The notes below the pieces were generated by a model. The model saw nothing but the letters and a program-made list of their open reading frames with translations. It was not told the origin of the DNA and ran no database searches. A stretch of DNA of 64,000 nt from NCBI RefSeq assembly GCF_002917105.1, contig NZ_PQFZ01000002.1, forward strand, positions 124,001 to 188,000, read 5' to 3'. This document shows, one piece after another, positions 5,805-51,653 of this stretch; position 1 is the first letter of the stretch, and every line of letters starts with the position of its first letter. A program made the translations under genes and the position numbers. This DNA comes from Allobosea psychrotolerans (lineage in GTDB: Bacteria; Pseudomonadota; Alphaproteobacteria; Rhizobiales; Beijerinckiaceae).

Positions 5805-5863
5805 CACCGCCGGCAAACCCTCATTCTCGCAACCGCTCGTATCTGTCCTGCTGGAGCCCCGTG

Positions 5864-8149: not shown

Positions 8150-8218
8150 AGCATTTTCGAGCGAGGTGGACACCGGTTCGCGTGAAGAAAATGCGATAAA
8201 ACAAAGAGTTAGAGCATT
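8147..8218. repeat. Dispersed intergenic palindromic repeat, copy 1
   Basis: Directly at the GH31 stop, GCATTTTC (8151-8158) pairs with GAAAATGC (8187-8194). The 15-mer CAAAGAGTTAGAGCA at 8202-8216 recurs exactly at 49278-49292, and the GAGCATTTTCGAGCGA sequence has a near copy at 56356. This is a REP-like or terminator-like intergenic element. Confidence 0.7.
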
Positions 8219-8268
8219 CACGCGATTCGGAAAAGCGCGGAAAGGCGCTAGGCTGCTTGCGCCATTGC

Positions 8269-8287
8269 TATAACCCTGCGGAATAAT
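8269..8287. promoter_or_regulatory. Candidate LysR-binding box upstream of binding-protein gene
   Basis: TATAACCCTGCGGAATAAT lies about 85 bases before the gene at 8371. A near copy, ATAACCCTGGAGAATA, lies at 12201-12216 in the LysR/flavoprotein divergent region. In both places the flank is GCGCCATTGC on the left and CGACTT-TGAC/GGAC about 20 bases to the right. The shared block suggests one regulator, probably the LysR protein at 11280-12197. Confidence 0.5.
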
Positions 8288-8370
8288 CCATCCCCGATTT
8301 CGACTTGGACAGCTTGGGATAGTCGCCCCCACTATTCCGTCCAAATAACGGAAAACGAGGGGATCGAACG

Positions 8371-9918: not shown

Positions 9919-9949
9919 GAGCGGCTGCAGTGACGGATGGGCACTTGCC

Positions 9950-11293
9950 ATGACGATATCGCGCCAGCTCGCGGACTACGTCGCCACTGCCGGCAGGCAA
10001 CTGCTGACGGATGATCTGCGCGAGGCCGCTTGCCGCAGTGTCCTCGACCTCGTCACTGCGGCCGCCGCCGGGATCGCCGCGCCCGGACCGCGAGCGGTTC
10101 GCCAGGTGGCGCGGATGACGATGGCGGGCGGGGCGCTTCCGGTCTGGTTCTCCGGGCAGACGGCCGGCCTCGCCGGAGCGGTCTGGTGCAACGCCTCCTC
10201 CGCGGCCGCGCTCGATCTCGATGACGGTCACCGCTTGGCGCGCGGCCATCCCGGTGCGGCCGTCATCCCTGCGGCCTTCGCCGCCGCGCAGGAGATGGAC
10301 ACGACGACAGAGGAGCTGCTGCAGGCGATCGTCATCGGCTACGAGGTTGGCGTCGCAGTCGGGGCCGCGCGGCGCTTCTATGCCAATACCGGCATGTGGT
10401 CGGGCTATGGCGTCGTCTCGGCGCTCGGATGCCTCAGGCGCACGCCCCCGGAACAGCTGGCCCATGCCTTCGCCATCGCCGGCATGAGCGCTCCCAACCA
10501 GCTCCATGCCGGATTCGGGCCGGCCTTTCGCGCGCAGGAAGGCAGCGACGTCAAGGAAGGCATAGCCTGGTCGAGCCTGACGGCAGTGAATGCGCTCCTG
10601 CTCGCCGAGGCCGGCCATACCGGGCCGCTCGGCCTGCTCGACAATGCGGAGCATTTCCGCCTGGACGGACTGGCCGGCGACCTCGGCGGCCAGGGCTATG
10701 TCGCCCGCAGCTACATCAAGTTCCATGCCTGCTGCCGGCATGTCCATGCGCCAGTCGAAGCGTTGCTCGGCCTGCTCGCCCGGAACCGTATCGATCCGCA
10801 AGCGATCGAAGGGATCAAGGTCGCGACCTATAGCGGAGCCCTGCGCCTCGCCAATCGGCCGCGTCCGCAGGGCTTCACCGATATCCAGTTCTCTATTCCC
10901 TATTGCCTCGGCCTGGTCGCGGTAGACGGACCGGACGCCTTGCTGCCGCTGACGGAAGCCGCCCTCGACCGGCCCGACATCGTCGCCCTCGCGGAGAAGG
11001 TCTCACTGCGCCTCGATCCCGAGCTCGACGCCCGTTTTCCGGCCGAGACGCTGTCGCACGTCACCATCCGCGCCGGCGGACGCGAATTCGTCTCGCCCGT
11101 CACCGCGCCGCGCGGCGAGGCATCCGCGCCGCCGTCATGGCGCGATCTCGAAGACAAGCTCCGGAAAGCCTGCCGCTTCGTCGCGACGCCTGCACAGCAG
11201 GAGCAGTTGCTCGCCGCATCCAGCCGGTTGCGAGCTGGCGACCATGCTCCGCTGCTGGATGCCTTCGCGACGATCCGGCTCAGCCCGGGGTGA
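9950..11293 (+). CDS. MmgE/PrpD family protein
   Basis: A 447-residue protein of the MmgE/PrpD family (2-methylcitrate dehydratase/cis-aconitate decarboxylase fold). Recognisable features are the N-terminal helical opening ADYVATAGRQLL, the conserved DDGHRLARGHPGAAVIPAAFA block at about residue 90, and the KFHACCRHVHAPVEALL block near 260, which corresponds to the conserved K-x-x-x-C-x-x-x-H-x-x-x-D/E region. Some members dehydrate or decarboxylate; others have no assigned reaction. It starts 31 bases after the binding protein. Its 3' end overlaps the convergent LysR gene by 14 bases. Confidence 0.88.
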   Translation: MTISRQLADYVATAGRQLLTDDLREAACRSVLDLVTAAAAGIAAPGPRAVRQVARMTMAGGALPVWFSGQTAGLAGAVWCNASSAAALDLDDGHRLARGHPGAAVIPAAFAAAQEMDTTTEELLQAIVIGYEVGVAVGAARRFYANTGMWSGYGVVSALGCLRRTPPEQLAHAFAIAGMSAPNQLHAGFGPAFRAQEGSDVKEGIAWSSLTAVNALLLAEAGHTGPLGLLDNAEHFRLDGLAGDLGGQGYVARSYIKFHACCRHVHAPVEALLGLLARNRIDPQAIEGIKVATYSGALRLANRPRPQGFTDIQFSIPYCLGLVAVDGPDALLPLTEAALDRPDIVALAEKVSLRLDPELDARFPAETLSHVTIRAGGREFVSPVTAPRGEASAPPSWRDLEDKLRKACRFVATPAQQEQLLAASSRLRAGDHAPLLDAFATIRLSPG

Positions 11294-12197
11294 GGATCGT
11301 TCGCGAAATCTCGGCCGCGGCTTCGCGTGCGCCGTCCAGGAAGGCATCGACGAGCCGGGCGTTGCGGCTGTCGCGGATGCGGCAGAGCTGGAAGTCGAGC
11401 TGAACGGCCGGCTCGAAACCTCGTATCGCCACCTTGCCCCGCAAGCCCCCGACGGCCGATGGATGAACCAGCGATACCCCGATACCGGCGGCCACGAACT
11501 CGCATAGCGTCGGTGAAATGCTCACGACCATGACGATCTCGGGGGCTACTCCGTGAGCGTCGAAAACCTGCCCGATGCGCCGGCTCGTAAAACTCTCCGG
11601 ATCGAATGAGATGAAGGCGGTTCCGTCGAGATCGCGAGGCGTGATCACGCTCTTTTCCGTCAAGGGGTGGTCCAGCGGCAGGATGCAGACGAGTGGATGA
11701 GCCATCAGCGGCTCGGAGACGATGTAGGGGTTGTCGATCGGTGAGACGGTGAATCCGACGTCGAGCTTTCGGGTCACGAGCCCGTCGGCGATCCATTGCG
11801 AGCTGCGCGACTGCACCGAGCAGAACACACCCGGCTGACGGGCGAGAAAGCGCGTGGTCGCCTCCCTTATGAAGGCGCCGGAGAGCGCCGGCATGACGCC
11901 GATCAGCAGGCGGCTCTGCTCGTCGCGGCGGATCGCCTCGACCGCGTTCTCGACCTGGCGCACGCCGGCGAAGATCCGGTCGATCTCCTCATAGAGCCGC
12001 ATCCCGCGCCGGGTCAGCACGAGCCTTCCCTTCACGCGGTCGAATAGCTGGAGAGCCGTGTCCTCCTCCAGATGGGCGATCAGCTTGCTCATGGCAGGCT
12101 GCGAGATGTTCATCATCTCGGCTGCGCGGCTGACCGTGCCGTATTCGATCACGGCCTTGAAGGCCTCGACCTGTCGAAGATTGAGCCGTCGCGCCAT
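11280..12197 (-). CDS. LysR family transcriptional regulator
   Basis: A 305-residue LysR regulator. The winged helix spans the first 65 residues (LRQVEAFKAVIEYGTVSRAAEMMNISQPAMSKLIAHLEEDTALQLFDRVKGRLVLTRRG), followed by a substrate-binding effector domain. I take the ATG at 12197; an upstream in-frame ATG at 12278 would add 27 residues that do not look like LysR. It lies inside the binding-protein/oxidoreductase locus and is divergent from the flavoprotein at 12290. The shared box at 8269 and 12201 suggests it controls both transcription units. Confidence 0.93.
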   Translation of the reverse strand: MARRLNLRQVEAFKAVIEYGTVSRAAEMMNISQPAMSKLIAHLEEDTALQLFDRVKGRLVLTRRGMRLYEEIDRIFAGVRQVENAVEAIRRDEQSRLLIGVMPALSGAFIREATTRFLARQPGVFCSVQSRSSQWIADGLVTRKLDVGFTVSPIDNPYIVSEPLMAHPLVCILPLDHPLTEKSVITPRDLDGTAFISFDPESFTSRRIGQVFDAHGVAPEIVMVVSISPTLCEFVAAGIGVSLVHPSAVGGLRGKVAIRGFEPAVQLDFQLCRIRDSRNARLVDAFLDGAREAAAEISRTILTPG

Positions 12198-12200
12198 TGC

Positions 12201-12216
12201 ATAACCCTGGAGAATA
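12201..12216. promoter_or_regulatory. Candidate LysR-binding box in divergent region
   Basis: ATAACCCTGGAGAATA lies directly upstream of the LysR start codon and about 75 bases before the flavoprotein at 12290. It matches the box at 8270-8285 at most positions. Overlap with the LysR ribosome-binding region would fit autoregulation. Confidence 0.5.
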
Positions 12217-12289
12217 GCATCGAGAGAAAAACGACTTTGACGAAATACAATAAGGCTTCCTAACGTCAAAGCCGGCAAGGGAAATTCAC

Positions 12290-13408
12290 ATGCGGCCGGA
12301 CATCATCGTCATCGGAGGGGGCACGGTCGGCGCGGCGATCGCGTATGGCCTGGCGAAGCAGCGGCAGCAGGTTCTTCTGCTCGACGGCGATGATGGCGAT
12401 TTCCGCGCGGCCCGCGCGAATTTCGGGCTCGTCTGGCTGCAGGGCAAGGGGCTCGGCATGCCGGCCTATCAGGCCCTGACCCGTGACAGCATCGCCTTGT
12501 GGCGCGGCTTCACCAACGAAATCGAGGCCGAGACGCAGATCGACCTCGCCTATGAGCAGAATGGCGGCCTCGCTTTCTGCCTGGGCGAAGAGGGCTTCGA
12601 GCAGCGACGGCACGACCTGATGCGTCTGCACAACCAGCGCGGCGAGGGCGCACCGGATTGGGAGATGCTCGATCGTTCGGCGCTGCAGCGCTTGCTGCCG
12701 AAGGTCACCCTCGGCCCCAATGTGACGGGGGCGAGCTTCGGCCGACATGATGGACACGCCAATCCGCTGCGGCTGCTGGCGGCTCTGCACGGAGCGCTCC
12801 CCCGCCATGGCGGCAGCATCCGCCATCGGGCGCGCGTCGAGCGGATCGAGCCGATGGGTCGCGATTTTCGCCTGATCCTCGACGGCGAGACATTGGTCGC
12901 GCCGCGCATCGTCATCGCGGCCGGGCTCGGCTCCCCAGCATTGGCCCGGCAGGTCGGGCTCGAGGTGCCCCTGCGCCCCGAACGTGGACAGGTGCTCGTG
13001 ACCGAACGGCTCGAGCCGTTCCTGCCGCTGCCGGCAAGCGGGCTGCGACAGACCGGCGAAGGCACGGTGATGATCGGCGCGACCAAGGATCGCCCGGGCT
13101 TCGATGTTTCGACGACGGCTGAAGCGGCTGCCGGGCTGAGCCGCAAGACCGTCGAGATCGTCCCGGCTTTGGCTCAGGTCCGCCTCGTCAGGCAATGGGC
13201 CGGCCTCAGGATCATGACGCCCGACGGCCATCCGATCTATGCGCAGTCGCAGAGCCATCCCGGCGCCTTCGTCGCGCTCTGCCATTCCGGCGTGACGCTC
13301 GCGGCCTTCCATGCCGAGACGCTGGCGGGAGCCATCGCCGCCGGCGTTCTGCCCGAAAACCTTTCTCCCTTTCACCAGAGACGCTTCGATGTTCCGCAAG
13401 CTGCATGA
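12290..13408 (+). CDS. FAD-dependent oxidoreductase (DAO family; HcnC/opine-oxidase B-like)
   Basis: A 372-residue flavoprotein of the D-amino-acid oxidase superfamily. The FAD dinucleotide-binding motif is IIVIGGGTVGAAIAYGLAK (residues 5-23), and the C-terminal FAD site ends in GHPIYAQ...HSGVTLA. With the [2Fe-2S] protein and second flavoprotein that follow, it resembles the beta subunit of heteromeric HCN synthase, opine oxidase or D-hydroxyproline dehydrogenase. It would oxidise a secondary or D-amine at the membrane. The substrate is not known. AAGGGA lies upstream of the ATG. Confidence 0.85.
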   Translation: MRPDIIVIGGGTVGAAIAYGLAKQRQQVLLLDGDDGDFRAARANFGLVWLQGKGLGMPAYQALTRDSIALWRGFTNEIEAETQIDLAYEQNGGLAFCLGEEGFEQRRHDLMRLHNQRGEGAPDWEMLDRSALQRLLPKVTLGPNVTGASFGRHDGHANPLRLLAALHGALPRHGGSIRHRARVERIEPMGRDFRLILDGETLVAPRIVIAAGLGSPALARQVGLEVPLRPERGQVLVTERLEPFLPLPASGLRQTGEGTVMIGATKDRPGFDVSTTAEAAAGLSRKTVEIVPALAQVRLVRQWAGLRIMTPDGHPIYAQSQSHPGAFVALCHSGVTLAAFHAETLAGAIAAGVLPENLSPFHQRRFDVPQAA

Positions 13409-41329: not shown

Positions 41330-42043
41330 ATGCGGACGTTGGGATATTTCGAGGGAGCATACGGGACGATCTGCATCATAGAGGACAAGGTGACCGGAGC
41401 CCGTCGCTACTACGAAGGCAACGCATTCCAGAGCCACGCCCTGCCGAGTGGCGAAAGCTGCTTTACCTATATCCACCTGATGAGCAGCTTTCTTCGGCAG
41501 GCAACGAACGTGCTGTTGCTCGGATGCGCCGGAGGCACGCTTGCGACCATGCTGTATCGGCAGGGAAAGGCGGTCACGCTCGTCGACCACAATCCGATCA
41601 GCTTCAAGCTCGCGCAGGAATATTTCTGGATGCCACGCGGGATTCGATGCATCGAGGCAGATTTCAAAGATTTTCTCGGGATGACGTCCGAGCGCTTCGA
41701 CGGCATTGCAATCGACGTTGGGGGCACGGACTTTCGGTTCGGGGATGAGTTCGGTCGCCAGACCTGTCAGGCCTTGCGCGCTACGCTGACGCAGTCCGGG
41801 CGAATTGCCATGAACCTTCTTGTCGAGCACGATCTGGACCCACTACCCGATGAGATCACCGCTGACCTTGCGGGATCGGATCTGAATGCCTGGATCATCG
41901 ATGAAGCCTTTGGAGAACCGGAGCGCAATGCTGTCATCGCATGCGCGCCGGAACGGCGACTGGAGCTGGGGCAGGACACCTTTCCACCAGTTATCGCCGC
42001 TGAGTTCCTGAGCTGGTCCGTCCGGCGCCCACGGCTCTGGTAG
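41330..42043 (+). CDS. Spermidine synthase-like protein (SAM-fold)
   Basis: A 237-residue protein with the spermidine synthase/methyltransferase fold: FEGAYGTICIIEDKVTGARRYYEGN, YIHLMSSFL, then VLLLGCAGGTLATMLYRQGKAVTLVDHNPISFKLA (nucleotide-binding motif), followed by FDGIAIDVGG in place of the catalytic D-x-x-D loop of true spermidine synthases. Many such proteins lack polyamine activity. It ends 17 bases before the convergent stop of the HyfI-like gene. Substrate not assigned. Confidence 0.75.
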   Translation: MRTLGYFEGAYGTICIIEDKVTGARRYYEGNAFQSHALPSGESCFTYIHLMSSFLRQATNVLLLGCAGGTLATMLYRQGKAVTLVDHNPISFKLAQEYFWMPRGIRCIEADFKDFLGMTSERFDGIAIDVGGTDFRFGDEFGRQTCQALRATLTQSGRIAMNLLVEHDLDPLPDEITADLAGSDLNAWIIDEAFGEPERNAVIACAPERRLELGQDTFPPVIAAEFLSWSVRRPRLW

Positions 42044-42059: not shown

Positions 42060-42590
42060 TCACAGCGGGCCCCGGGCTCTGCCGTTCGCCATGAGCGCGA
42101 GCAGCCCCTTGAGCAAGGCAGTCGGGGTCGGAGGGCAGCCGGGGATATACAGGTCGACCGGAACGACCGCAGCGACACCGCCGAGGCATGCATAGCCTCC
42201 GGCGAAAAGGCCGCCATCGTAGGCGCAGGCTCCCGCGGCCACGACCCATTTGGGTGCTGGAATCGCCTGATAGGTCCTCAGGAGCGCTTCGCTCATGTTC
42301 CTGGTGACAGGTCCTGTCACGAGCAAGACATCGGCATGCCGCGGGGAGGCAACAAACCTCAATCCGAAGCGCTCCAAGTCGTAGAACGCGTTGCTGAGAG
42401 CATGGATCTCAAGTTCGCAGCCATTGCACGACCCGGCATCGACTTCGCGGATGGACAGGCTGCGTCCAAGCTTGGCGCGTGCGGCATGGTCGAGCTGAAT
42501 GGCGAGTGCCGAAATCTCGGCGTCGGCTTCGCCAGGAGCAGGCTCGGTGAGTGGCGCTTTCGCAAGGCTCTCGAACAAGATCTTCCGCAT
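42060..42590 (-). CDS. HyfI/NuoB-like iron-sulfur subunit of Ehr-type complex
   Basis: A 176-residue NuoB/hydrogenase small-subunit homologue. Four cysteines of the proximal [4Fe-4S] (N2) cluster are visible: C55 and C58 (SCNGCELEI), C122 (AAGACAYDGG) and C152 (PGCPPTP). It would pass electrons between the large subunit and its unknown partner on the cytoplasmic face. It is last in the six-gene operon, nine bases after the large-subunit stop. No ferredoxin-like HyfA or HyfH subunit is encoded with it. Confidence 0.88.
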   Translation of the reverse strand: MRKILFESLAKAPLTEPAPGEADAEISALAIQLDHAARAKLGRSLSIREVDAGSCNGCELEIHALSNAFYDLERFGLRFVASPRHADVLLVTGPVTRNMSEALLRTYQAIPAPKWVVAAGACAYDGGLFAGGYACLGGVAAVVPVDLYIPGCPPTPTALLKGLLALMANGRARGPL

Positions 42591-42599
42591 GGCGTGGAC

Positions 42600-44117
42600 C
42601 TAGAGGTCATGCCCCGAATAGGAGCAGTTGAACGATTTGTTGCAGAGGGGAAAGTCGGCGACGATATTGCCCTCGATCGCGGCCTCCAGCAGCGGCCACT
42701 GGAACCAGGACGGATCACGCAGGTGGCAGCGATCGACGCATCCATCCGCTCCGAGGCGGACCCAGGCGAGAACATCGCCGCGGAATCCTTCGACCAGCGC
42801 CAAACCCTCCGCGGGCTTGCCGGTCGCCCCCACCGGTGCACGCAGAGGGCCGTCCGTCGGCATGGCATCTAGAATCTGTTCGATCAGCGCGAGGCTCTGC
42901 TGGACCTCCTGGATGCGGATCCAGACCCGCGCGTTGACATCGCCTTCACTGCGCACGGGGATCTCGAAACGTAAACTGTCATAGGGCGCATAGGCGAGGT
43001 TGCGTCGAACATCGAAGTTGCGCCCCGATGCCCTGCCGACATAGCCTCCGCAGCCATACTGCCGCGCCAGCGTCGGATTCAGGATGCCGGTTCCGACCGT
43101 CCTGTCCTGAAGCGAGGCGGTATTATCATAAAGCTCAACCAGCGCCGGAAAGGCCTTACCGGCGATATCGGCCAATTCACGGATCAGTCCGGCCCCTTCC
43201 GGAGTGAGATCCCCCGCGACGCCACCCGGCATGATGCAATCCATCATCAGGCGATGCCCGAAGCAGGCGGCAGCGGCCCGCAGCACGCGCTCGCGCAGAA
43301 CGCTGGTATGGGCGTGCAGGAGCGCGAAGGCGGCATCGTTGCAGATCGCGCCGATATCCCCGAAATGATTGGCGAGGCGTTCGAGCTCGGCCATCAGGGC
43401 CCGCAGCCAGAGGGCGCGCGGGGGCACGTCGATGGCAAGCGCCGCCTCGACGGCCCGGGCGAATGCGAAGGCATAGGCGACCGTGCTGTCGCCCGAGGTT
43501 CGTCCGGCGAGGCGCGCGGCCTGTTCGATGGACGCGCCGGCCATCAGCGACTCGACGCCCTTGTGGGCGTAGCCCAGCCGCTCCTCGAGCCGCACGACCG
43601 TTTCGCCATTGGCGGTGAAGCGAAAATGGCCCGGCTCGATGATGCCCGCATGCACGGGGCCGACCGGAATCTGGTGCAGGCCCTCGCCCTCCGCGCCGAG
43701 GAATGGATAGCTCGTGGGCTCCCCGGCTGCTTCGGCATGGCGAGCCAACGGGTTGCGCAGTCCCCAGCGGCCGTGATCAAGCCAAGGCCGCGGGTCAGGC
43801 AGCTCCGCAAGTTCGATCCCGAACAGATCCCGGAGCGTGCGTTCCAGGCGCAGGGCCGGAGGATGAACCCGGCTCACCGAGGGGATCGGTCCCTCGCCGG
43901 TCAGCGCCGTGGCAACGATGACACCGCCCTCTCTCTCGTCGAGAAGCGCCATGTGAACCGCATCGGCATCTCCCCAGAGTCCAAGAAGGGTGCTCTCTCC
44001 CTGGGAAAGCCGCGAGATCAAAGTCTGCCAAAGCGAAGCACTCACCACGACCCGAGGGTATGATCGATGCGCCTCGATCACGCGACCGGTTGCAATTGTG
44101 TCTGAGAGGGTCGGCAT
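42600..44117 (-). CDS. HyfG-like large subunit lacking first NiFe cysteine pair
   Basis: A 505-residue fusion of a NuoC-like N-terminal part (residues 1-130) and a NuoD/hydrogenase-large-subunit part (PVGPVHAGIIEPGHFRF, RLEERLGYAHKGVESLM). In HycE/HyfG the first NiFe pair is R-V-C-G-I-C; here the segment reads R-T-S-G-D-S, so both ligands are Ser (S208, S211). The C-terminus has FPLCNKSFNCSYSGHDL, a C-x5-C instead of DPCxxC. It should therefore not bind a NiFe centre. This is the hallmark of energy-converting-hydrogenase-related complexes. Confidence 0.88.
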   Translation of the reverse strand: MPTLSDTIATGRVIEAHRSYPRVVVSASLWQTLISRLSQGESTLLGLWGDADAVHMALLDEREGGVIVATALTGEGPIPSVSRVHPPALRLERTLRDLFGIELAELPDPRPWLDHGRWGLRNPLARHAEAAGEPTSYPFLGAEGEGLHQIPVGPVHAGIIEPGHFRFTANGETVVRLEERLGYAHKGVESLMAGASIEQAARLAGRTSGDSTVAYAFAFARAVEAALAIDVPPRALWLRALMAELERLANHFGDIGAICNDAAFALLHAHTSVLRERVLRAAAACFGHRLMMDCIMPGGVAGDLTPEGAGLIRELADIAGKAFPALVELYDNTASLQDRTVGTGILNPTLARQYGCGGYVGRASGRNFDVRRNLAYAPYDSLRFEIPVRSEGDVNARVWIRIQEVQQSLALIEQILDAMPTDGPLRAPVGATGKPAEGLALVEGFRGDVLAWVRLGADGCVDRCHLRDPSWFQWPLLEAAIEGNIVADFPLCNKSFNCSYSGHDL

Positions 44118-44132
44118 CGCTTACGTCCTCCC

Positions 44133-45581
44133 TTACCCGAGCAGGCCTGCAACGTGCCGAAACCAGGAGACGAGTGGTGGCGGCAGATAGATGCCCGCCA
44201 TCAGGACCAGAGCGAGATGTCCGATCATCGGAAGATAGGACGCCTGCACCGGTTCGCTGCTGCCGGTAGGCTCGCCGAAGGCCAGCCCATGGACCCGCAG
44301 CATGAGCGCTCCGAATGCGACGAGCAGGCCGAGGACCAACGGCAGCGCCAACAGAGGCGCGCGGGCGAAGGTCGAGCTGACCACCAGGAATTCGCTCATG
44401 AAGATTCCGAGCGGCGGCATGCCGGCGATGGCAACCACACCCACGACGAGGCCCCACCCCAGGACTGGATGGCTGACCGTCAAGCCGTGGAGGTCGGCAA
44501 TCTTCTGCGTGCCCTTGGCCTGGGCGATATGGCCGACCGCAAAAAAGATCGCCGACTTTGTCAGGCTGTGCATCGTCATGTGCAGAAGGCCCGCGAAATT
44601 GGCCAGCGGTCCCCCCATGCCGAATGCGAAGACAATGATGCCCATATGCTCGATCGACGAATAGGCGAACATCCGTTTGATGTCGCGGCGGCGGTAGAGC
44701 ATGAACCCGGCGAAGACGAGCGAGAGCAGGCCCAGCGTCACCATCAACGGCCCGGGCGTCAGCGCCGCGGGATTGGCGGCCAGCAGCAGCTTGAAGCGCA
44801 GGACGGCGTAGAGCGCGACATTGAGCAGCAGGCCCGACAGCACGGCCGAGATTGGCGTCGGGCCTTCGGCATGGGCATCCGGCAACCAGGCGTGCAACGG
44901 TGCCAAGCCCACCTTCGTGCCGTAGCCGAGCAACAGGAAAACGAAGGCGAGGTTGAGTAGCGCGGGATCGAAGCTGGAGACGCGCTGGATCAGCACAGTC
45001 CAGACCATGCCGTCCAAGCCTTCGCCGACCACCGGCCGGGCAGCCATATAGACCAGAATCGTCCCGAAGAGCGCGAGCGCGATGCCGACGCTGCCGAGGA
45101 TGAAGTATTTCCACGCCGCCTCGATTGCGGCGTCGGTGCGGTAGATGCCGACCATGATCACTGTAGTGAGCGTCGCCATCTCGATCGCCACCCACATCAG
45201 CCCGATGTTATTGGCCACCAGCGCCAGGTTCATGGCGAACAGCAGGGCCTGGTACATGGCGTGGTAGAAGCGCAGATGGGCCGGAGTCAGCCGCTCCGTC
45301 TCCAGCTCGTGGGCGATGTAGCTGGCGCTGAAGACGCTGGTGGTGAAGCCGATGAAGGTGTTGAGGACCACGAAGACGATATTGAGATCGTCGACCAGGA
45401 TGTAGGGTCCCGGCTCAGGCTTCGACGCGAACAGCGACAGCGCCGCTAGGAAGGTCAGGAAGGCCGAGAGGACGTTGAGCCGCGCCGAGAGACGGTAGTT
45501 CGGCAACGATGCCAACAAGACACTCGTCGCGGCGGGAACGGCCAGGATCAAGGTGATGCCGTCGACCGGAAGCGGGTTCAT
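44133..45581 (-). CDS. HyfF-like proton-pumping membrane subunit
   Basis: A 482-residue antiporter-type (NuoL/M/N, MrpD) subunit with about 14 hydrophobic segments. Conserved channel residues are visible in WVAIEMATLTTVIMVGIYR (glutamate of TM5), KVGLAPLHAWLPDAHAEGPTPISAVLSG (lysine and TM7-8 loop) and MFAYSSIEHMGIIVFAFGMGG. It would conduct protons or sodium ions. It overlaps HyfE by four bases. Confidence 0.9.
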   Translation of the reverse strand: MNPLPVDGITLILAVPAATSVLLASLPNYRLSARLNVLSAFLTFLAALSLFASKPEPGPYILVDDLNIVFVVLNTFIGFTTSVFSASYIAHELETERLTPAHLRFYHAMYQALLFAMNLALVANNIGLMWVAIEMATLTTVIMVGIYRTDAAIEAAWKYFILGSVGIALALFGTILVYMAARPVVGEGLDGMVWTVLIQRVSSFDPALLNLAFVFLLLGYGTKVGLAPLHAWLPDAHAEGPTPISAVLSGLLLNVALYAVLRFKLLLAANPAALTPGPLMVTLGLLSLVFAGFMLYRRRDIKRMFAYSSIEHMGIIVFAFGMGGPLANFAGLLHMTMHSLTKSAIFFAVGHIAQAKGTQKIADLHGLTVSHPVLGWGLVVGVVAIAGMPPLGIFMSEFLVVSSTFARAPLLALPLVLGLLVAFGALMLRVHGLAFGEPTGSSEPVQASYLPMIGHLALVLMAGIYLPPPLVSWFRHVAGLLG

Positions 45582-46240
45582 CGCTGGTCCCCGCGGAAGC
45601 GGTCGAGCGCGTGGACATCGACGGTGTCGAACCGCTCGCGGATGCGAAACAGGAAGATGCCGATCACGATGAAGGCGACGAGAACCGAAAAGGCCACGCT
45701 GATCTCGACCACGAGCGGCATGCCCTTTGCGCCCGTCGCAGCCAGGATCAAGCCATTTTCCAGAGACATGAAGCCGACGACCTGACTGACCGCGTTGCGG
45801 CGTGTCACCATCATCAGCAGGCCCAGCAAGACGACGGAGAGGGCAAAGGCCAAATCCTCCCGCGCGAGCGGGTCGGCGTCAGCCGTCACTTTCAACATGA
45901 CCACCATGGACAGGGCGACAAGCCCAATGCCCGCCAGCATGGTGGGGCCGATGCTGACGACGTTCTCGATCTCGCGATGGATGCCGAGCCGGGCGATGAT
46001 CCGATGCAGCGCGACCGGAATCACGATCGCCTTGACGACCAGCGCGATCACGGCCGTGATGTAGAGATGCGGGGCGCCCTGGACCCACGCCTGCCACGCA
46101 ACCGACATGGCGAGCACCGTCGCCTGCAGGGCAAACACGTTGAGAAGCGCGTAGAGCCGATCCTGGTACAGCAGCATCAGGCTGACGAGCACCAATCCGC
46201 CGGCGAGCAAATGGGCGATATCGAAGGCCAGGTTGCCCAT
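45578..46240 (-). CDS. HyfE-like membrane subunit
   Basis: A 220-residue hydrogenase-4 component E homologue with about seven hydrophobic segments (MGNLAFDIAHLLAGGLVLVSLMLLYQDRLYALLNVFALQA, then FMSLENGLILAATGAKGMPLVVEISVAFSVLVAFIVIGIFLFRI). HyfE is a NuoK/MrpC-like ion-path subunit. The start directly follows the HyfC stop, and the end overlaps HyfF by four bases. Confidence 0.88.
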   Translation of the reverse strand: MGNLAFDIAHLLAGGLVLVSLMLLYQDRLYALLNVFALQATVLAMSVAWQAWVQGAPHLYITAVIALVVKAIVIPVALHRIIARLGIHREIENVVSIGPTMLAGIGLVALSMVVMLKVTADADPLAREDLAFALSVVLLGLLMMVTRRNAVSQVVGFMSLENGLILAATGAKGMPLVVEISVAFSVLVAFIVIGIFLFRIRERFDTVDVHALDRFRGDQR

Positions 46241-47197
46241 CTATAGGCTCCGCGACACGAAGAGCAGCAAGGTGCCGAGAAGTCCGAGCATGAGGGCGGC
46301 TCCCAGGAAGTCCGGCACGCGGAAAACGCGCATCTTCGCCACGGTGGTTTCGAACAGGGCGAGCAGAAAGCCGCCGGCGGCGAGCTTGGCGATATAGACC
46401 GCAACGGCCGCGACCTGGGCCGCGGCACCTGCGCCGGGCAGCGCCAGCCCCCAAGGCAGGAACACGCAGCCGATCAGCGAGATGTAGAGCAGGAGCTTCA
46501 GCGACGCCGCGAGTTCGATCATCGCGAGGTGCCGTCCGGAATATTCCAGCACCATCGCCTCGTGAACCATGGTGAGTTCGAGATGCGTCGCCGGATTGTC
46601 GATCGGGATGCGGGCGTTTTCGGCGATCGCCACCATCACGAGCGCGACGAGCGCAAGCGCAAGCGAAACCCTCACCCCAACCGACGAGGACAGCATGAAG
46701 CTCGCGACATTCGAGAGCTGGGTCGATCCGGCGAGGAGCGCGAGCGTGAACACGATCATGATCATCGCGGGTTCGGCCAGCGTTGCGATCATGACCTCCC
46801 GGCTCGACCCGATGCCGCCAAAGCTCGTGCCGACATCCATCCCGGCGAGGGCCAAAAAGAACCGCGCGCTGCCGAGCAGGGCGATGATCGCGATCAGATC
46901 CGCGGACCAGCTGAACAGAAGGCTGGTGGCGAAGGTCGGCACCAACGCTGCCGCCACCCAAGTCGTCGCAAAGATCAGGTAGGGGATCACCCGAAACAAC
47001 CAGGAAGCAGTGTCCGCAAGGATCACCTCCTTGCGTAGGAGCCGCAAGAGGTCCCGGTAAGGCTGCACGATCGACGCGCCGCGGCGGCGCAGCAGCTGCG
47101 CCTTCACTTTGCGGACAAAGCCGGTGAGCAGCGGCGCCAGCGTCAGCACCAGGAGCATCTGTGCACCCTGGATGGCGAGATCCGAGATCACGACCAT
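46241..47197 (-). CDS. HyfC/NuoH-like membrane subunit
   Basis: A 318-residue NuoH-type subunit that anchors the soluble arm to the membrane. Recognisable stretches are RRGASIVQPYRDLLRLLRKE (quinone-cavity loop equivalent), AENARIPIDNPATHLELTMVHEAMVLEYSGRHLAM and several hydrophobic helices. I take the ATG at 47197, which overlaps HyfB by 10 bases; the much longer open frame is a shadow of HyfB. Confidence 0.9.
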   Translation of the reverse strand: MVVISDLAIQGAQMLLVLTLAPLLTGFVRKVKAQLLRRRGASIVQPYRDLLRLLRKEVILADTASWLFRVIPYLIFATTWVAAALVPTFATSLLFSWSADLIAIIALLGSARFFLALAGMDVGTSFGGIGSSREVMIATLAEPAMIMIVFTLALLAGSTQLSNVASFMLSSSVGVRVSLALALVALVMVAIAENARIPIDNPATHLELTMVHEAMVLEYSGRHLAMIELAASLKLLLYISLIGCVFLPWGLALPGAGAAAQVAAVAVYIAKLAAGGFLLALFETTVAKMRVFRVPDFLGAALMLGLLGTLLLFVSRSL

Positions 47198-49200
47198 AGC
47201 GCCAGCACCAGCAGGAGGAAGACGAGGGCGGAGAAGACCAGGCTCAGATATTGGCGAATGGTCAGGAACTGGAGCCGGTTGAGCCGCTCGGCCGCGACGG
47301 AGACAGAGTTGGTGATGGGGGTATAGATGAGCTCCCAGGCGAGATCGCGCAGATCGACCTGGAACCGTGCCGGACCGAGGTTTCCGGGCGGAGGCATCTC
47401 GACACGCTCCCGGGCTTGAAAGGCATAGCCGCCGAAGACACGTCGAATCGGTTGGGCGAAGCTGCTCGCGGTATACTGCGTCGCCGGGCTCGATTGCGGG
47501 AAGCCGCAATCCCATGCCGGTGCGCGTCGCAAGGCATGCGACGCTAGACGGTGGATGACGTAAGCCGCAAGCGAGGCCGATGCCGCGATGAAGCAGAAGA
47601 CGAGGAGGCCGTTATACGAGCTACGACTTTCGGCGACCGGTATGATCGAAAGCCAGCTCATACCGGCCTGCTCAGGCATCCGGCTGCCGACGAGGCTCTG
47701 TGCCACGGGCGCGATGGCATCGATCACGAAACCAGGCAGGATGCCGGCGAGAATGCACAACCCTGCAAGGATGACCATCGCGCTGAGCGACCAACGATCG
47801 ACCTCCGCAGCCCTCTCTGCTGCCGGGCTGCGGGGCCGGCCGAGAAAGACGATCCCGAAGACCCGAACGAAGCAGGCCGCGGCGAGCGCGGCCGACAGAG
47901 CCAGCAGCGCACCGACGGCGGGAACGAGCAGCTTCAGTCCCCATAGTGGAAGCTGCGGGCTCAGTAGAATGGCCTGGAAGGCAAGCCATTCGGAAGCGAA
48001 GCCGTTCAGGGGCGGCAGCGCCGAAATCGCGACGCACGCGACCAGCACCACGACGCTCGTGGTCGGCATGCGATGGATCAGCCCTCCAAGCCGCTCCATC
48101 TGACGCTCGCCGGTCGCAGTGAGCACGGCGCCAGCCCCAAAGAACAAAGCGCTCTTGAAGAGCGCGTGATTGAAGGCATGGAAGAGCGCCGCGGTCAGCG
48201 CCAAGGCGCTTGCTGCGGGCAGGCTGTTTGCACGGAATGCGAGTGCGAGGCCGAGTCCGACGAAGATCAGGCCGATATTCTCGATCGTGCTGTAGGCAAG
48301 CACGCGCTTGAGATCTGTCTCCATCAGCGCGTAGAGCACGCCGAGCACGGCGGTCCCACTACCGATGGCCAGAATCGGAAAACTCCACCACCAGGCCGTC
48401 GGGCCGAGCAGATCGAAGACGATCCGGATGAAGCCATAGACCGCGACCTTGGTCATCACCCCGCTCATCGACGCCGAGACATGGCTCGGCGCCGCCGGGT
48501 GGGCGAGAGGCAACCAGACATGGAGCGGCACGAGGCCAGCTTTCGATCCTGCGCCGAGCAAGGCGAGGCCGAGGACGAAACCTGCGAGGAGCGGCGAGAG
48601 CTGGTGCACGCGGATCGAGGCGAAGGCGTAGCCCCCCTCCGGCCCCGCCAGCAGACCGAAAGCGAGCAGCAGGGCGAGCGTGCCGAAACACGCCATCACG
48701 ATATAGACGTAACCGGCACGAATATTGTCGCGCTCGTGGTGATGCGCCATGACGAGCGCCCAGGAGGCGAGGGACATGAATTCCCAGGACAGGAGGAAAC
48801 TGAAGGCGTCATCCGCCAGAATGACGAGATTCATGCCGGCCAGGAACGCCGGAAAGAACGGTAGCACGCGTTGCGGCTCGTCCTCGTGCTGACCGTAGCC
48901 GACACCGTAGAGGCTCGCAGCCGCACCGCCGAGATTGATCACGACCAGGAAGAAGGCCGACAGCGCATCCATGCGGAAATGAGCGCCGATCCAGGGAAGG
49001 CCTAGAGGCAACACGATACTGGGCGGAACTCCAGTGCCTCCAACAAGCTGGAGCACCGCCGTGATCAACGCGACGGTGCTGGTGGCGGCAGTCGCGCCAT
49101 AGGTAAGACGCGACCCTTGCGACCAGTTGCCGGCGACGATGCCGAAACCCGCAATGCCCAGCAGAGCCGCCACGCACCACAGTCCGACGATCGCTACCAT
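47188..49200 (-). CDS. HyfB-like proton-pumping membrane subunit
   Basis: A 670-residue antiporter-type subunit, first gene of the operon, with about 14-16 hydrophobic segments. LLSWEFMSLASWALVMAHHHE supplies the conserved glutamate, KAGLVPLHVWLPLAHPAAPSHVSASMSGVMTKVAVYG the lysine/histidine region, and KRVLAYSTIENIGLIFVGLGLAL the second half. The C-terminal extension includes a large soluble part (APAWDCGFPQ, then EVIYTPITNSV-like residues) as in HyfB. With HyfF it would give the complex two pump modules. Confidence 0.9.
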   Translation of the reverse strand: MVAIVGLWCVAALLGIAGFGIVAGNWSQGSRLTYGATAATSTVALITAVLQLVGGTGVPPSIVLPLGLPWIGAHFRMDALSAFFLVVINLGGAAASLYGVGYGQHEDEPQRVLPFFPAFLAGMNLVILADDAFSFLLSWEFMSLASWALVMAHHHERDNIRAGYVYIVMACFGTLALLLAFGLLAGPEGGYAFASIRVHQLSPLLAGFVLGLALLGAGSKAGLVPLHVWLPLAHPAAPSHVSASMSGVMTKVAVYGFIRIVFDLLGPTAWWWSFPILAIGSGTAVLGVLYALMETDLKRVLAYSTIENIGLIFVGLGLALAFRANSLPAASALALTAALFHAFNHALFKSALFFGAGAVLTATGERQMERLGGLIHRMPTTSVVVLVACVAISALPPLNGFASEWLAFQAILLSPQLPLWGLKLLVPAVGALLALSAALAAACFVRVFGIVFLGRPRSPAAERAAEVDRWSLSAMVILAGLCILAGILPGFVIDAIAPVAQSLVGSRMPEQAGMSWLSIIPVAESRSSYNGLLVFCFIAASASLAAYVIHRLASHALRRAPAWDCGFPQSSPATQYTASSFAQPIRRVFGGYAFQARERVEMPPPGNLGPARFQVDLRDLAWELIYTPITNSVSVAAERLNRLQFLTIRQYLSLVFSALVFLLLVLALWS

Positions 49201-49223
49201 CGTGCTCGCTCCTAGAGCCGGAT

Positions 49224-49261
49224 GATGTCAGACGGGATCACAAGTGAACCTGTCTGACATC
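49224..49261. repeat. Perfect 10-bp inverted repeat upstream of Ehr operon
   Basis: GATGTCAGAC (49224-49233) pairs with GTCTGACATC (49252-49261); the inner 18 bases are also partly symmetric. It lies 24 bases upstream of the HyfB start, where it could be a REP-like unit or affect expression of the operon. Confidence 0.6.
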
Positions 49262-49277
49262 TGAATCCGTATCTCAT

Positions 49278-49338
49278 CAAAGAGTTAGAGCAGGATCGAT
49301 GCAAAAAGCCGGTTTCCACTTTTTCGCATCCTGCTCTA
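49278..49338. repeat. Dispersed intergenic palindromic repeat, copy 2
   Basis: A long imperfect hairpin: TAGAGCAGGATCGATGCAAA at 49286 pairs with TTTTTCGCATCCTGCTCTA ending at 49338. It begins with the 15-mer CAAAGAGTTAGAGCA found also at 8202. It abuts the stop of the XRE gene, so it may end that transcript. Confidence 0.7.
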
Positions 49339-49644
49339 GGCCGCTCTGGCCCCGGCTGTCTGGGGCATTTTTCGGGGCTGGTGCTCGACGCCGACGGCAG
49401 CTTCCTTGAGGCGAACGCCGCGCCCCTTGCCTTGACTGGGTATCCCTTCTCCGATCAGCTCGATTCCGGCGGTGTCCAACGCGCCGATCAGCTTCATCAG
49501 TGAGTCGACATTGCCCCGGATCACCCCGTCGCTTCCTTCCATGCGCTGGATCGTCGGCACAGAAAGCTGCGACAGCGCGGCAAGACCACGCTGGTCGATA
49601 CCAAGAAGGGCGCGTGCGGCCCGTAACTGCGCTCCGGTGATCAT
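49336..49644 (-). CDS. XRE family helix-turn-helix regulator
   Basis: A 102-residue Cro/CI-type protein. The HTH is MITGAQLRAARALLGIDQRGLAALSQLSVPTIQRMEGSDG, followed by RGNVDSLMKLIGALDTAGIELIGEG and a basic tail. The ATG at 49644 begins the usual MITGAQ start of this rhizobial family; the longer frame adds 50 residues without support. The regulated target is unknown. It lies alone between the Ehr operon and the antiporter. Confidence 0.87.
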   Translation of the reverse strand: MITGAQLRAARALLGIDQRGLAALSQLSVPTIQRMEGSDGVIRGNVDSLMKLIGALDTAGIELIGEGIPSQGKGRGVRLKEAAVGVEHQPRKMPQTAGARAA

Positions 49645-50021: not shown

Positions 50022-51653
50022 TTACCCCGTGTAACGGGCTTCAAGCAGGTCAATTTCGCGGATGAACTTGCGTGCAGCTTCGCTATCCAGCTCGCGGTTA
50101 CGAGACAGCCGGTACAGCTCCGTACGTTCAGCGCGTAGGCCAGCGACCCGCAGCTTCCGCTCAATCGCCTCAATGCTTCGGCCAAGCGAAGCTGCCTCCG
50201 GGCTCTGCAATCGGCCATCGAGGCGTCGGCGATAGAGTTCCATGACGCGGGCAGAGGCGTCGGCGTAAAGGTCGGCATCCGAGCGCCCCGAAGACATGGC
50301 GTGTTGAGTTCGCTCGATGGCCTTGATCGCGGCTTCGGCGGCGGACGCTCGAGCGCGATCGACCTGGACCTGATCGAACGCCTCCGGCGGCAATTCAAGG
50401 TTACGCAGTAGGCTGGGGAGGCCGATGCTCGCAGCGACGAGCGAGACGAAGATGACGCCCGCCGCCAGGAAGATGGCCAGATCACGAGCAGGGAAAGCAG
50501 AGCCATCCGCGAGGGCAAGGGGCAACGTCAACACGCCGGCCAAGGTAATCGCACCGCGGACGCCTGCGAGCGACATGGCCGCGATCAAGCGCCAGCTCAC
50601 TGCCCGCAAAGGCTGCCCTTTTTGCTTGGCCCGGAAGAGCGTGAGCTTCAGCGATATCCAGACCCAGGCGAAGCGTAGCACCGCAAGCGCTCCGCTGATA
50701 ACCAGGACATAAATGGCCAGCCACCAAGGCTCACGATGGCCGGTCAGCTTCACAGTTTCGACCGCGCCAGCAAGAATGCCGGGCATCTGCTCGCCAAGCA
50801 GTACGAAGATAACTCCGTTGGCTGCGAACTGGACCATGTCCCAGACCGCAGCGCGCCGCACTCGGGTCACCGCCAGAGCCTGGCCCGTTTCCTCGACCAG
50901 GCTCATGGTCATGCCCGCCGCGACAGCCGCGAGGATACCGGAGCAATGGAAGTGCTCGGCCAGCAGATAGGCTCCAAATGGAATCAACAGGCTGATCAGG
51001 ATTTGGGAGCTTGTGTCCTCTCCCAGATGGGCTGTGACCCATTGCTTGCCCTTCGATATCGCCCAGGTGACGCAGATGCCGATGGCAATGCCCCCAAGTG
51101 CGACCCATAGGAACGTGACGAAGGCGGCCTGGATGGAGAAGGTCCCAGTGAGCATCGCGGCCACGGCGAAGCGCATGCAGACCAGCCCCGAGGCATCGTT
51201 CAACAGCGATTCTCCTTCGAGGATATGCATCAGCCGCTTGGGAATCGGGACACGAGCCGCGATTGCCGATACCGCGATGGGGTCGGTCGGGGACACTACG
51301 GCTGCCAGGGCGAAGGCGACCGGGAGCGGCATGGCGGGGACTAGCCAGCTGACCAGAAAACCGACGCCGACGACCGTGAAAAGGACAAGACCCAATGCCA
51401 GTTCGAGGACGACTGCCCGGTCCCGAACGATATGCTCTTTGGGGATACGCCAGCCATCGAGGAACAGCAGCGGCGGCAGGAAAAGAACGAAGAAGAGCTG
51501 GGGGTCTAGTACCACTGTCGGCACGACGGACAGCGCAACCAGGGCACCGAGCGCAATCTGGACCAACGGCAATGGCAGCGTCGTCAACCGCGCCAGCGAG
51601 CTGCTGATCACGACGGCCAGAAGCAGGAAAAGGATGGTCGCGACAGAGTCCAC
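50022..51653 (-). CDS. Na+/H+ antiporter (CPA1 family)
   Basis: A 543-residue sodium/proton exchanger with about 12 hydrophobic segments. Hallmarks: FFVLFLPPLLFLDGWRIP, AAVVSPTDPIAVSAIAARVPIPKRLMHILEGESLLNDASGLVCMRFA (the ND ion-binding pair and the SPTDP motif), and SLAGVRGAITLAGVLTLPLAL. A C-terminal cytoplasmic tail of about 120 residues is rich in charged helices and may sense pH. No partner gene is obvious. Confidence 0.92.
   Translation of the reverse strand: MDSVATILFLLLAVVISSSLARLTTLPLPLVQIALGALVALSVVPTVVLDPQLFFVLFLPPLLFLDGWRIPKEHIVRDRAVVLELALGLVLFTVVGVGFLVSWLVPAMPLPVAFALAAVVSPTDPIAVSAIAARVPIPKRLMHILEGESLLNDASGLVCMRFAVAAMLTGTFSIQAAFVTFLWVALGGIAIGICVTWAISKGKQWVTAHLGEDTSSQILISLLIPFGAYLLAEHFHCSGILAAVAAGMTMSLVEETGQALAVTRVRRAAVWDMVQFAANGVIFVLLGEQMPGILAGAVETVKLTGHREPWWLAIYVLVISGALAVLRFAWVWISLKLTLFRAKQKGQPLRAVSWRLIAAMSLAGVRGAITLAGVLTLPLALADGSAFPARDLAIFLAAGVIFVSLVAASIGLPSLLRNLELPPEAFDQVQVDRARASAAEAAIKAIERTQHAMSSGRSDADLYADASARVMELYRRRLDGRLQSPEAASLGRSIEAIERKLRVAGLRAERTELYRLSRNRELDSEAARKFIREIDLLEARYTG

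What the first reader, a model, noticed from the sequence alone, without database searches (positions are those of the whole stretch)
42060..49200. Six-gene Hyf-like membrane complex that cannot be a NiFe hydrogenase
Gene order HyfB-C-E-F-G-I with two pump subunits, a NuoH-like anchor, a NuoB-like Fe-S subunit (four cluster Cys kept) and a fused NuoC/NuoD large subunit. In the large subunit the first NiFe cysteine pair (R-V-C-G-I-C in HycE/HyfG) is R-T-S-G-D-S (S208, S211), and the C-terminal pair is C-x5-C instead of DPCxxC. HyfA, HyfH, maturation genes and formate dehydrogenase are absent. This fits the Ehr (energy-converting hydrogenase-related) group, whose electron donor and function are unknown.
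Basis: partly seen in the sequence, partly recalled or inferred. Interest (0 to 1): 0.8.

Follow-up and report, generated by a model that had tools for sequence, protein, structure and literature searches.

The report
Hydrogenase-like ion pump lacking its metal
A soil bacterium carries a six-gene membrane machine built like a hydrogen-making enzyme, but the metal-holding cysteines of its reaction site are gone and other residues, conserved in its relatives, sit in their place, so it probably drives ion pumping with a reaction not yet identified.

Summary
Six tight minus-strand genes (HyfB-C-E-F-G-I type, 42060-49200) encode a complex-I-superfamily complex whose large subunit cannot hold NiFe. 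The genome lacks HypD. HyfA and maturation genes were found in 0 of 92 loci of the clade, HyfH-like once. The clade is widespread (53 of 397 genomes of the order). The old NiFe pocket is conserved in a new form: S-G-D-S, N-D, N-K-S-F-N, with the canopy Asp kept in hydrogenases and complex I replaced by Asn in 90 of 90. Pump residues, cluster cysteines and coupling loops are kept; dN/dS is 0.00-0.28. It is an Ehr-type (energy-converting hydrogenase-related) complex under purifying selection, not a relic. Most likely it is a redox-driven proton (or Na+) pump with unknown donor and substrate; membership in Ehr rests on composition and site loss, as no published Ehr sequence could be aligned. In passing: a second NiFe-less Hyf-like complex in relatives lies directly behind a fluoride riboswitch in three of three loci examined.

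The parts
47188..49200 (-). HyfB-like pump subunit (670 aa); pump residues E140, K220, K251, K349, E404; loop W563-D-C565-G (47503-47514), taken as the ND3-type coupling loop
   Evidence: NCBIfam 'hydrogenase 4 subunit B' over cut-off
46241..47197 (-). HyfC/NuoH-like membrane anchor; TMH5-6 loop with a 3-residue insertion T-M-V-H-E-A-M (46553-46573)
   Evidence: these loop positions are conserved in 79-81 of 81
45578..46240 (-). HyfE-like membrane subunit (220 aa)
   Evidence: NCBIfam 'hydrogenase 4 membrane subunit' E 1.7e-24, below cut-off
44133..45581 (-). HyfF-like pump subunit (482 aa); E134, K223, E397 kept; N254 at the NuoM K265 position, as in E. coli HyfF
   Evidence: NCBIfam 'hydrogenase 4 subunit F' over cut-off
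42600..44117 (-). HyfG-like fused NuoC/NuoD large subunit (505 aa) without NiFe ligands
   Evidence: nearest fold 7z0s_E (HycE), TMq 0.82
43485..43496 (-). G residues S208-G-D-S211 at the first NiFe CxxC motif
42612..42644 (-). G residues C492-N-K-S-F-N-C498-S499-Y-S-G502: second NiFe motif replaced; canopy Asp replaced by N497
42060..42590 (-). HyfI/NuoB-like [4Fe-4S] subunit (176 aa), hydrogenase-type CxxC plus two further Cys
49336..49644 (-). small XRE-type helix-turn-helix regulator (102 aa from the likely start; the ORF extends to 49794), same strand, 135 nt upstream of hyfB
   Evidence: (HTH matches below cut-off); same-strand homologue upstream of B in 38 of 75 loci with room

Best explanation
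It is an Ehr-type complex: a complex-I-superfamily, redox-driven ion pump that no longer handles hydrogen. Shown by sequence: (1) a complete six-subunit core (B, F pumps; C anchor; E; G+I peripheral arm); (2) the four cysteines of one [4Fe-4S] cluster in I; (3) loss of all four NiFe ligands in G; (4) a new, nearly invariant set of polar residues in their place; (5) conserved coupling loops and pump residues; (6) purifying selection. Inferred: a soluble one-electron donor (ferredoxin, flavodoxin or a dehydrogenase) docks directly on the I/G face, since no HyfA or HyfH is encoded. The electron passes through the single cluster to a substrate or cofactor bound in the rebuilt pocket (S208, D210, S211, N260, D261, R446, K494, N497, with E161 on the beta1-beta2 loop). 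Reduction shifts the three coupling loops and drives proton (possibly Na+) export through F and B. I favour a small polar substrate or non-nickel cofactor over quinone. A small XRE regulator probably switches the operon on under a particular stress or redox state.
For: All NiFe ligands replaced. Pocket conserved across 92 large subunits (two lack the C-terminus): S208 90/92, G209 and D210 92/92, S211 86/92, N260-D261 92/92, C492 89/90, N493-K494 90/90, N497 90/90, C498 86/90, G502 90/90. Cluster Cys 86/86; B and F pump Glu/Lys kept in every sequence with the position present (74-89 sequences). B loop W, C, G 77/77; C loop T-M-V-H-E-A-M 79-81 of 81; G loop Glu161 92/92. dN/dS 0.00-0.28 for six genes in seven pairs. 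The [SA]-G-D-[ST]-T and N-K-S-x-N signatures also occur in four of four distant NiFe-less relatives from beta-, gamma- and actinobacterial plasmids. HyfA, HycI, HypA, HypC and FdhF queries hit 0 of 92 loci, HyfH once (weak, about 10 kb away); E. coli HyfA and HyfH did find the Azospirillum lipoferum FHL locus, whereas the HycI, HypA, HypC and FdhF queries came from that locus itself. No HypD in own genome.
Against: No donor, acceptor or pumped ion is identified, and no neighbour gene is conserved apart from the XRE regulator and a rarer methyltransferase-like gene. The AlphaFold model of G alone is unreliable exactly in the pocket loops (137-186, 483-487 and 490-505 below pLDDT 50), so a cavity could not be shown. 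With only one cluster, direct docking of a donor is unproven. Few genomes of the own genus keep it (2 of 67), so it is dispensable.
Confidence: 0.6

Rival explanations
1. A quinone-reducing mini complex I: the pocket takes quinone as in NuoD, the donor being ferredoxin or flavodoxin.
For: D261 matches an Asp of E. coli NuoCD (D325 in the sequence used), and HyfG has Phe there. N250 (85 of 92) resembles the canopy Asn of NDUFS2 named in the FHL paper (passages). The NiFe site is held to have become the quinone pocket in complex I.
Against: The position of E. coli NuoCD Y273 (the quinone-site Tyr, as I recall) is Gly209 in 92 of 92. The beta1-beta2 loop is of hydrogenase type with Glu161, not the His-bearing loop of complex I. 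The canopy Asp kept in E. coli NuoCD is Asn in 90 of 90.
Confidence: 0.2
2. A cation/proton antiporter: B, C, E and F act alone for pH or Na+ homeostasis and the G/I arm is structural or a redox sensor.
For: Pump subunits are related to Mrp subunits. An NhaP-type Na+/H+ exchanger lies next door. A sister NiFe-less complex sits behind fluoride riboswitches in three loci.
Against: Cluster cysteines (86/86) and pocket residues are as conserved as the pump residues. The exchanger gene was found in 1 of 92 related loci, that of the same-genus carrier. The fluoride complexes are a different family and, in L043, carry ferredoxin domains.
Confidence: 0.12
3. A decaying relic of a formate hydrogenlyase under relaxed selection, as a 2026 paper supposes for Geobacter Ehr (PMC13194489, passages).
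For: No known activity; only 2 of 67 same-genus genomes carry it.
Against: Six intact ORFs, dN/dS 0.00-0.28 in seven pairs, new residues fixed across distant relatives.
Confidence: 0.03
4. A cryptic hydrogenase with an unusual NiFe or other H2 site.
For: HycE is the nearest solved relative by sequence and fold.
Against: All four ligands lost; no HypD in own genome and in 20 of 40 tested carriers; no HycI-type peptidase found in 92 loci.
Confidence: 0.03

Closest known systems
Ehr, energy-converting (Ech-)hydrogenase-related complexes (Geobacter EhrA-1/A-2/B/C/L/S; also reported in comammox Nitrospira, ammonia-oxidising archaea, Margulisbacteria)
   Same: Same kinds of subunits by name, NiFe ligands lost (passages)
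   Different: Published Ehr sequences could not be aligned here. The C-x5-C and the frequent upstream XRE regulator are features of this mostly alphaproteobacterial clade
E. coli hydrogenase-4 (Hyf) and FHL-1 (Hyc)
   Same: Subunits B, C, E, F, G, I homologous; HycE is the nearest solved structure
   Different: Lacks HyfA, D, H, J, NiFe ligands and FDH at the locus, HypD in the genome
Rv0082-Rv0087 'Hyc' cluster of Mycobacterium tuberculosis
   Same: Six genes of the same annotated kinds (passages of PMC6901956); the relative L130 from Rhodococcus has the order I-B-C-E-F-G, which I recall for the mycobacterial cluster
   Different: Described there as a putative [NiFe]-hydrogenase complex under Rv0081; its NiFe motif was not examined here
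MBS (Mbx) sulfane sulfur reductase of Pyrococcus
   Same: Superfamily member that does not make H2, with antiporter-like subunits
   Different: MBS keeps two of four Cys in MbsL and has a three-Cys catalytic cluster plus MbsN (passages); here all four are lost and the cluster motif is the four-Cys hydrogenase type
Respiratory complex I (NuoB/C/D/H/L/M/N)
   Same: Fold, cluster position, pump residues, coupling loops
   Different: No NADH module or NuoI in the operon, no quinone Tyr or His loop, canopy Asp changed to Asn

Membership tests
Ehr complexes | Large subunit lacks the NiFe cysteine ligands | tested here: met
   S208, S211, S499, G502
Ehr complexes | Six/seven-subunit set with two NuoL/M-like subunits, NuoH-, HyfE-like, L and S | tested here: met
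   compared only with subunit names in passages of PMC7894505 and PMC13194489
Ehr complexes | Groups with published Ehr proteins in a tree | not tested
   No published Ehr sequence was retrievable; it groups with other NiFe-less complexes from plasmids, apart from HyfG
Ehr complexes | Ion translocation coupled to a redox reaction | not testable with these tools
   Conserved residues only
Group 4 NiFe hydrogenase (Hyf/FHL) | Two cysteine pairs binding NiFe | tested here: not met
Group 4 NiFe hydrogenase (Hyf/FHL) | Hyp maturation in the genome | tested here: not met
   No HypD match in own genome; 4 of 14 control genomes rang; other Hyp proteins not searched genome-wide
Group 4 NiFe hydrogenase (Hyf/FHL) | HyfA/HyfH electron-transfer subunits in the operon | tested here: not met
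   E. coli HyfA and HyfH found the Azospirillum lipoferum FHL locus used as control
MBS sulfane sulfur reductase | Proximal cluster held by three Cys, shortened motif; two large-subunit Cys kept | tested here: not met
   searches compared with passages of PMC7684303
Respiratory complex I quinone site | Tyr and beta1-beta2 His of NuoD | tested here: not met
   G209 92/92; hydrogenase-type loop with E161 92/92
Respiratory complex I quinone site | Asp at the NuoCD D325 position | tested here: met
   D261 92/92

The most novel reading that the evidence does not exclude
The old NiFe pocket has become the active site of a new kind of energy-conserving reaction. A small polar molecule or a non-nickel cofactor, held by S-G-D-S, N-D and N-K-S-F-N with an Asn in place of the canopy Asp, is turned over by a one-cluster mini complex I and drives ion pumping in soil Alphaproteobacteria. 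A separate NiFe-less lineage, with another pocket, has been recruited to fluoride resistance.
Probability: 0.3. Interest if true: 0.85.

Novelty: new member of a known kind. Interest (0 to 1): 0.52.

Why it matters
Ehr complexes are named in scattered papers, but their function is described as unknown or never investigated (passages), and one recent paper calls the Geobacter one non-functional. This clade shows strong selection on a rebuilt pocket and is present in named Rhizobium, Ensifer, Mesorhizobium, Bradyrhizobium and Azospirillum strains, including Rhizobium johnstonii 3841. The open question of what an Ehr does could therefore be attacked by deletion and purification in ordinary laboratory soil bacteria. 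It would also show how the hydrogenase site of the complex I superfamily was turned to other chemistry besides quinone.

Tried and rejected
Idea: a complex-I-like His-Asp pair (H185-D261). Rejected: the proton-donating His of complex I sits in the beta1-beta2 loop (passages), which here is of hydrogenase type.

Idea: formate dehydrogenase partner, as suggested in print for other Ehr (PMC6349859; and PMC7894505, where Geobacter Ehr subunits were more abundant on formate than in the hydrogen-containing conditions; passages). Here Fdh-alpha over cut-off is in 34 of 40 carriers and 34 of 40 non-carriers: no association, which does not exclude a partner encoded elsewhere. Idea: N-ATPase partner, because Methylovirgula pHY1 has an ATPase operon beside it: AtpR over cut-off in 6 of 40 carriers against 3 of 40 non-carriers (Fisher p 0.48), and its atpD and subunit-A genes hit no other locus held. 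Idea: nitrogen fixation. nifH over cut-off in 18 of 40 carriers against 6 of 40 (Fisher p 0.007), but not corrected for kinship, and the window genome has none over cut-off. HypD: 20 of 40 against 12 of 40 (p 0.11). I chose the 80 genomes by hand (40 of 59 carriers known, thinned by genus; 40 non-carriers).

Fluoride regulation of the window operon: no riboswitch in the window or in three relatives. AlphaFold of G gave no usable pocket. Expression of the Rhizobium orthologue: nothing in the main texts of two papers searched with guessed locus-tag prefixes and product names. The sigma-70-type promoter scan found none, 1.1 being expected by chance. Horizontal transfer into this genus: the tree puts the window gene with other members of its family (SH-aLRT 93, under its mark of 95, quick method) and G+C is unremarkable, so sporadic retention is as likely.

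Rows dropped: the residue counts leave out the sister locus L043 and hits of 45% identity or less; for subunit B this left 77 rows, as short contigs gave only hits to its paralogue F. L041 and L111 carry identical G sequences, so loci are not all independent. The HyfD query hits 89 of 93 records through its paralogues B and F, so HyfD absence rests on gene order, not on that search.
Full report
WHAT IS THERE. Six intact ORFs lie head to tail on the minus strand between 49200 and 42060. Pfam names them as two Proton_antipo_M subunits, an NADHdh (NuoH) subunit, a NuoK-like subunit below cut-off, a fused Complex1_30kDa/49kDa subunit and a NuoB-like subunit. NCBIfam puts B and F over its cut-offs for hydrogenase 4 subunits B and F, while no model reaches its cut-off for G. 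The window lies in a 6.4-Mb draft genome of 57 contigs rated 100% complete. One 286-base match of 89% to a Bosea plasmid suggests the genus Bosea; this is an inference.

THE NIFE SITE. A profile of the large subunit matches HycE of the E. coli FHL structure best (7z0s, 523 bits). In that alignment, and in the one with HyfG, S208 and S211 fall on the first cysteine pair and S499 and G502 on the second. It is a trait of this clade (89 of 90 and 86 of 90). The distant Cupriavidus, Paraburkholderia and Rhodococcus relatives have neither Cys and Methylocalor has only the first. The genome has no HypD match, and its only NiFeSe_Hases match, below the cut-off, is this gene.

A REBUILT POCKET. Across 92 large subunits (window plus 91 loci; two lack the C-terminus) the site has its own conserved residues: S208 90/92, G209 and D210 92/92, S211 86/92, N260-D261 92/92, N493-K494 90/90, N497 90/90, G502 90/90. 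The FHL structure paper calls the canopy Asp (HycE D529) strictly conserved across hydrogenases and complex I (PMC9474812, passages). Here it is N497 in 90 of 90, and Asn too in four of four distant NiFe-less relatives checked (Cupriavidus, Paraburkholderia, Methylocalor, Rhodococcus plasmids). Those four also keep [SA]-G-D-[ST]-T and N-K-S-x-N. The canopy Arg (R446) and the beta1-beta2 loop Glu (E161) are kept; the quinone Tyr and His loop of complex I are not. I made no literature search for this signature by name, so I do not claim that it is unreported.

THE MACHINERY AROUND IT. The four cluster cysteines of I are invariant (86/86) and of the hydrogenase spacing, so the MBS mechanism with a three-cysteine catalytic cluster (PMC7684303, passages) does not fit. 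Pump residues of B and F are kept, except that F has Asn at the NuoM K265 position, as E. coli HyfF does. The three loops said to link the redox site to the membrane arm have counterparts: W-D-C-G in B (W, C, G 77/77; assigned by alignment to HyfB), the Glu161 loop in G, and in C a T-M-V-H-E-A-M loop with a three-residue insertion against NuoH and HyfC (79-81 of 81). Seven pairs of relatives give dN/dS of 0.00 to 0.28 for the six genes. This contradicts, for this clade, the view that Ehr genes drift under relaxed selection (PMC13194489, passages).

DISTRIBUTION AND NEIGHBOURS. In 200 relatives, 13 carry the large subunit at 56% identity or more, among them 2 of 67 of the same genus. In 397 genomes of the order, 53 carry the C subunit at E of 1e-60 or better (21 of 141 genera). 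The order B-C-E-F-G-I is the same wherever the six were found at their own places, the sister locus L043 excepted. A quick tree puts the window copy with other members of its family (SH-aLRT 93) and shows some beta- and gammaproteobacterial copies nested inside the clade. Of 75 loci with room upstream, 38 have a same-strand XRE gene within 1.2 kb. In Rhizobium johnstonii 3841 a helix-turn-helix gene overlaps hyfB by four bases. A methyltransferase-like gene hits 9 of 92 loci, six at 47-97% identity and three at 34%. Beyond these, clustering of called ORFs showed only antisense artefacts, a generic ABC-ATPase family (17 loci) and families in 8 loci or fewer. HyfA, HycI, HypA, HypC and FdhF queries hit 0 of 92 loci and HyfH one (L050, weak). 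Some loci are short, the FdhF query was a fragment, and only the HyfA and HyfH controls were independent of the control locus.

CO-OCCURRENCE. In 40 carriers and 40 non-carriers that I picked: HypD 20 and 12, nifH over cut-off 18 and 6, Fdh-alpha over cut-off 34 and 34, AtpR over cut-off 6 and 3 (tests for HypD, nifH and AtpR). Half of the tested carriers thus live without HypD. Only nifH differs (p 0.007), uncorrected for kinship, and the window genome has no nifH over cut-off. No partner stands out. Papers on other Ehr suggest a link with formate dehydrogenase (passages); my counts neither show nor exclude it.

STRUCTURE. AlphaFold2 on 32 sequences gave mean pLDDT 82, but residues 137-186, 483-487 and 490-505, which hold the pocket loops, are below 50; they probably fold only against I and C. 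The nearest solved fold is HycE (TMq 0.82).

A SISTER SYSTEM. The weak homologue in same-genus genome G042 (L043) is a second NiFe-less six-gene complex with another pocket (R-V-S-A-V-G; A-S-F-G-L-T) and an I subunit fused to ferredoxin domains. A fluoride riboswitch (RF01734) lies directly upstream of its first gene; CrcB, DUF190, an enolase-Usp fusion, a CLC channel and three more fluoride riboswitches surround it. The one carrier among 397 genomes of the order (L134; five riboswitches, CrcB, DUF190, a CLC homologue and the Usp part, no enolase hit) and Caballeronia SBC1 (L135; three riboswitches, CLC and HIT homologues, no CrcB hit) also have a riboswitch directly upstream of the complex. 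Fluoride-riboswitch control of FHL-like genes is, as I recall, already reported in general; I saw no such paper here. The window operon has no such riboswitch. The case suggests that NiFe-less Hyf complexes can serve in ion stress.

VERDICT. An Ehr-type complex by composition and site loss, not yet by a tree with published Ehr. The most likely mechanism is a redox-driven ion pump with an unidentified donor and a rebuilt reduction site (0.6 for the whole statement; quinone reductase 0.2; antiporter 0.12). Papers were seen only as listings or passages, as cited.

Noticed in passing
L043 (G042:C3:2342000-2360000), 5229-12747; also L134 and L135: A second, distinct NiFe-less Hyf-like complex with a ferredoxin-fused small subunit lies directly behind a fluoride riboswitch in three of three loci examined; CrcB, DUF190 and an enolase-Usp fusion adjoin it in L043, part of this set in the other two.
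   Followed up: partly
window 41330-42043 (+): A spermidine-synthase/methyltransferase-like gene converges on the operon end; hits in 9 of 92 related loci, three of them at only 34% identity; NCBIfam match to polyamine aminopropyltransferase far below cut-off.
   Followed up: partly
window 49200-49336: Between the XRE gene and hyfB lies a palindromic element seen by eye in the output; I recall similar intergenic repeats in Rhizobiales. It may separate the two genes' transcription here.
   Followed up: no
L132 (Methylovirgula sp. HY1 plasmid pHY1): The operon sits beside an F0F1 ATPase operon that looks N-type to me, and a fae gene; two ATPase genes and fae gave no hit in the other loci held.
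   Followed up: partly
window 50022-51653 (-): NhaP-type Na+/H+ exchanger upstream of the operon; among 92 related loci found only in that of the same-genus carrier.
   Followed up: partly
L126, L059, L058, L046: A DUF4365 protein gene follows hyfI directly in three Rhizobium/Ensifer loci (L126 and L059 are the same plasmid).
   Followed up: no
plasmid records H4, H21, H22, H36: Public annotation calls the G subunit 'hydrogenase expression protein HypE' (H21, H22) or 'nickel-dependent hydrogenase large subunit' (H4, H36), both misleading.
   Followed up: no
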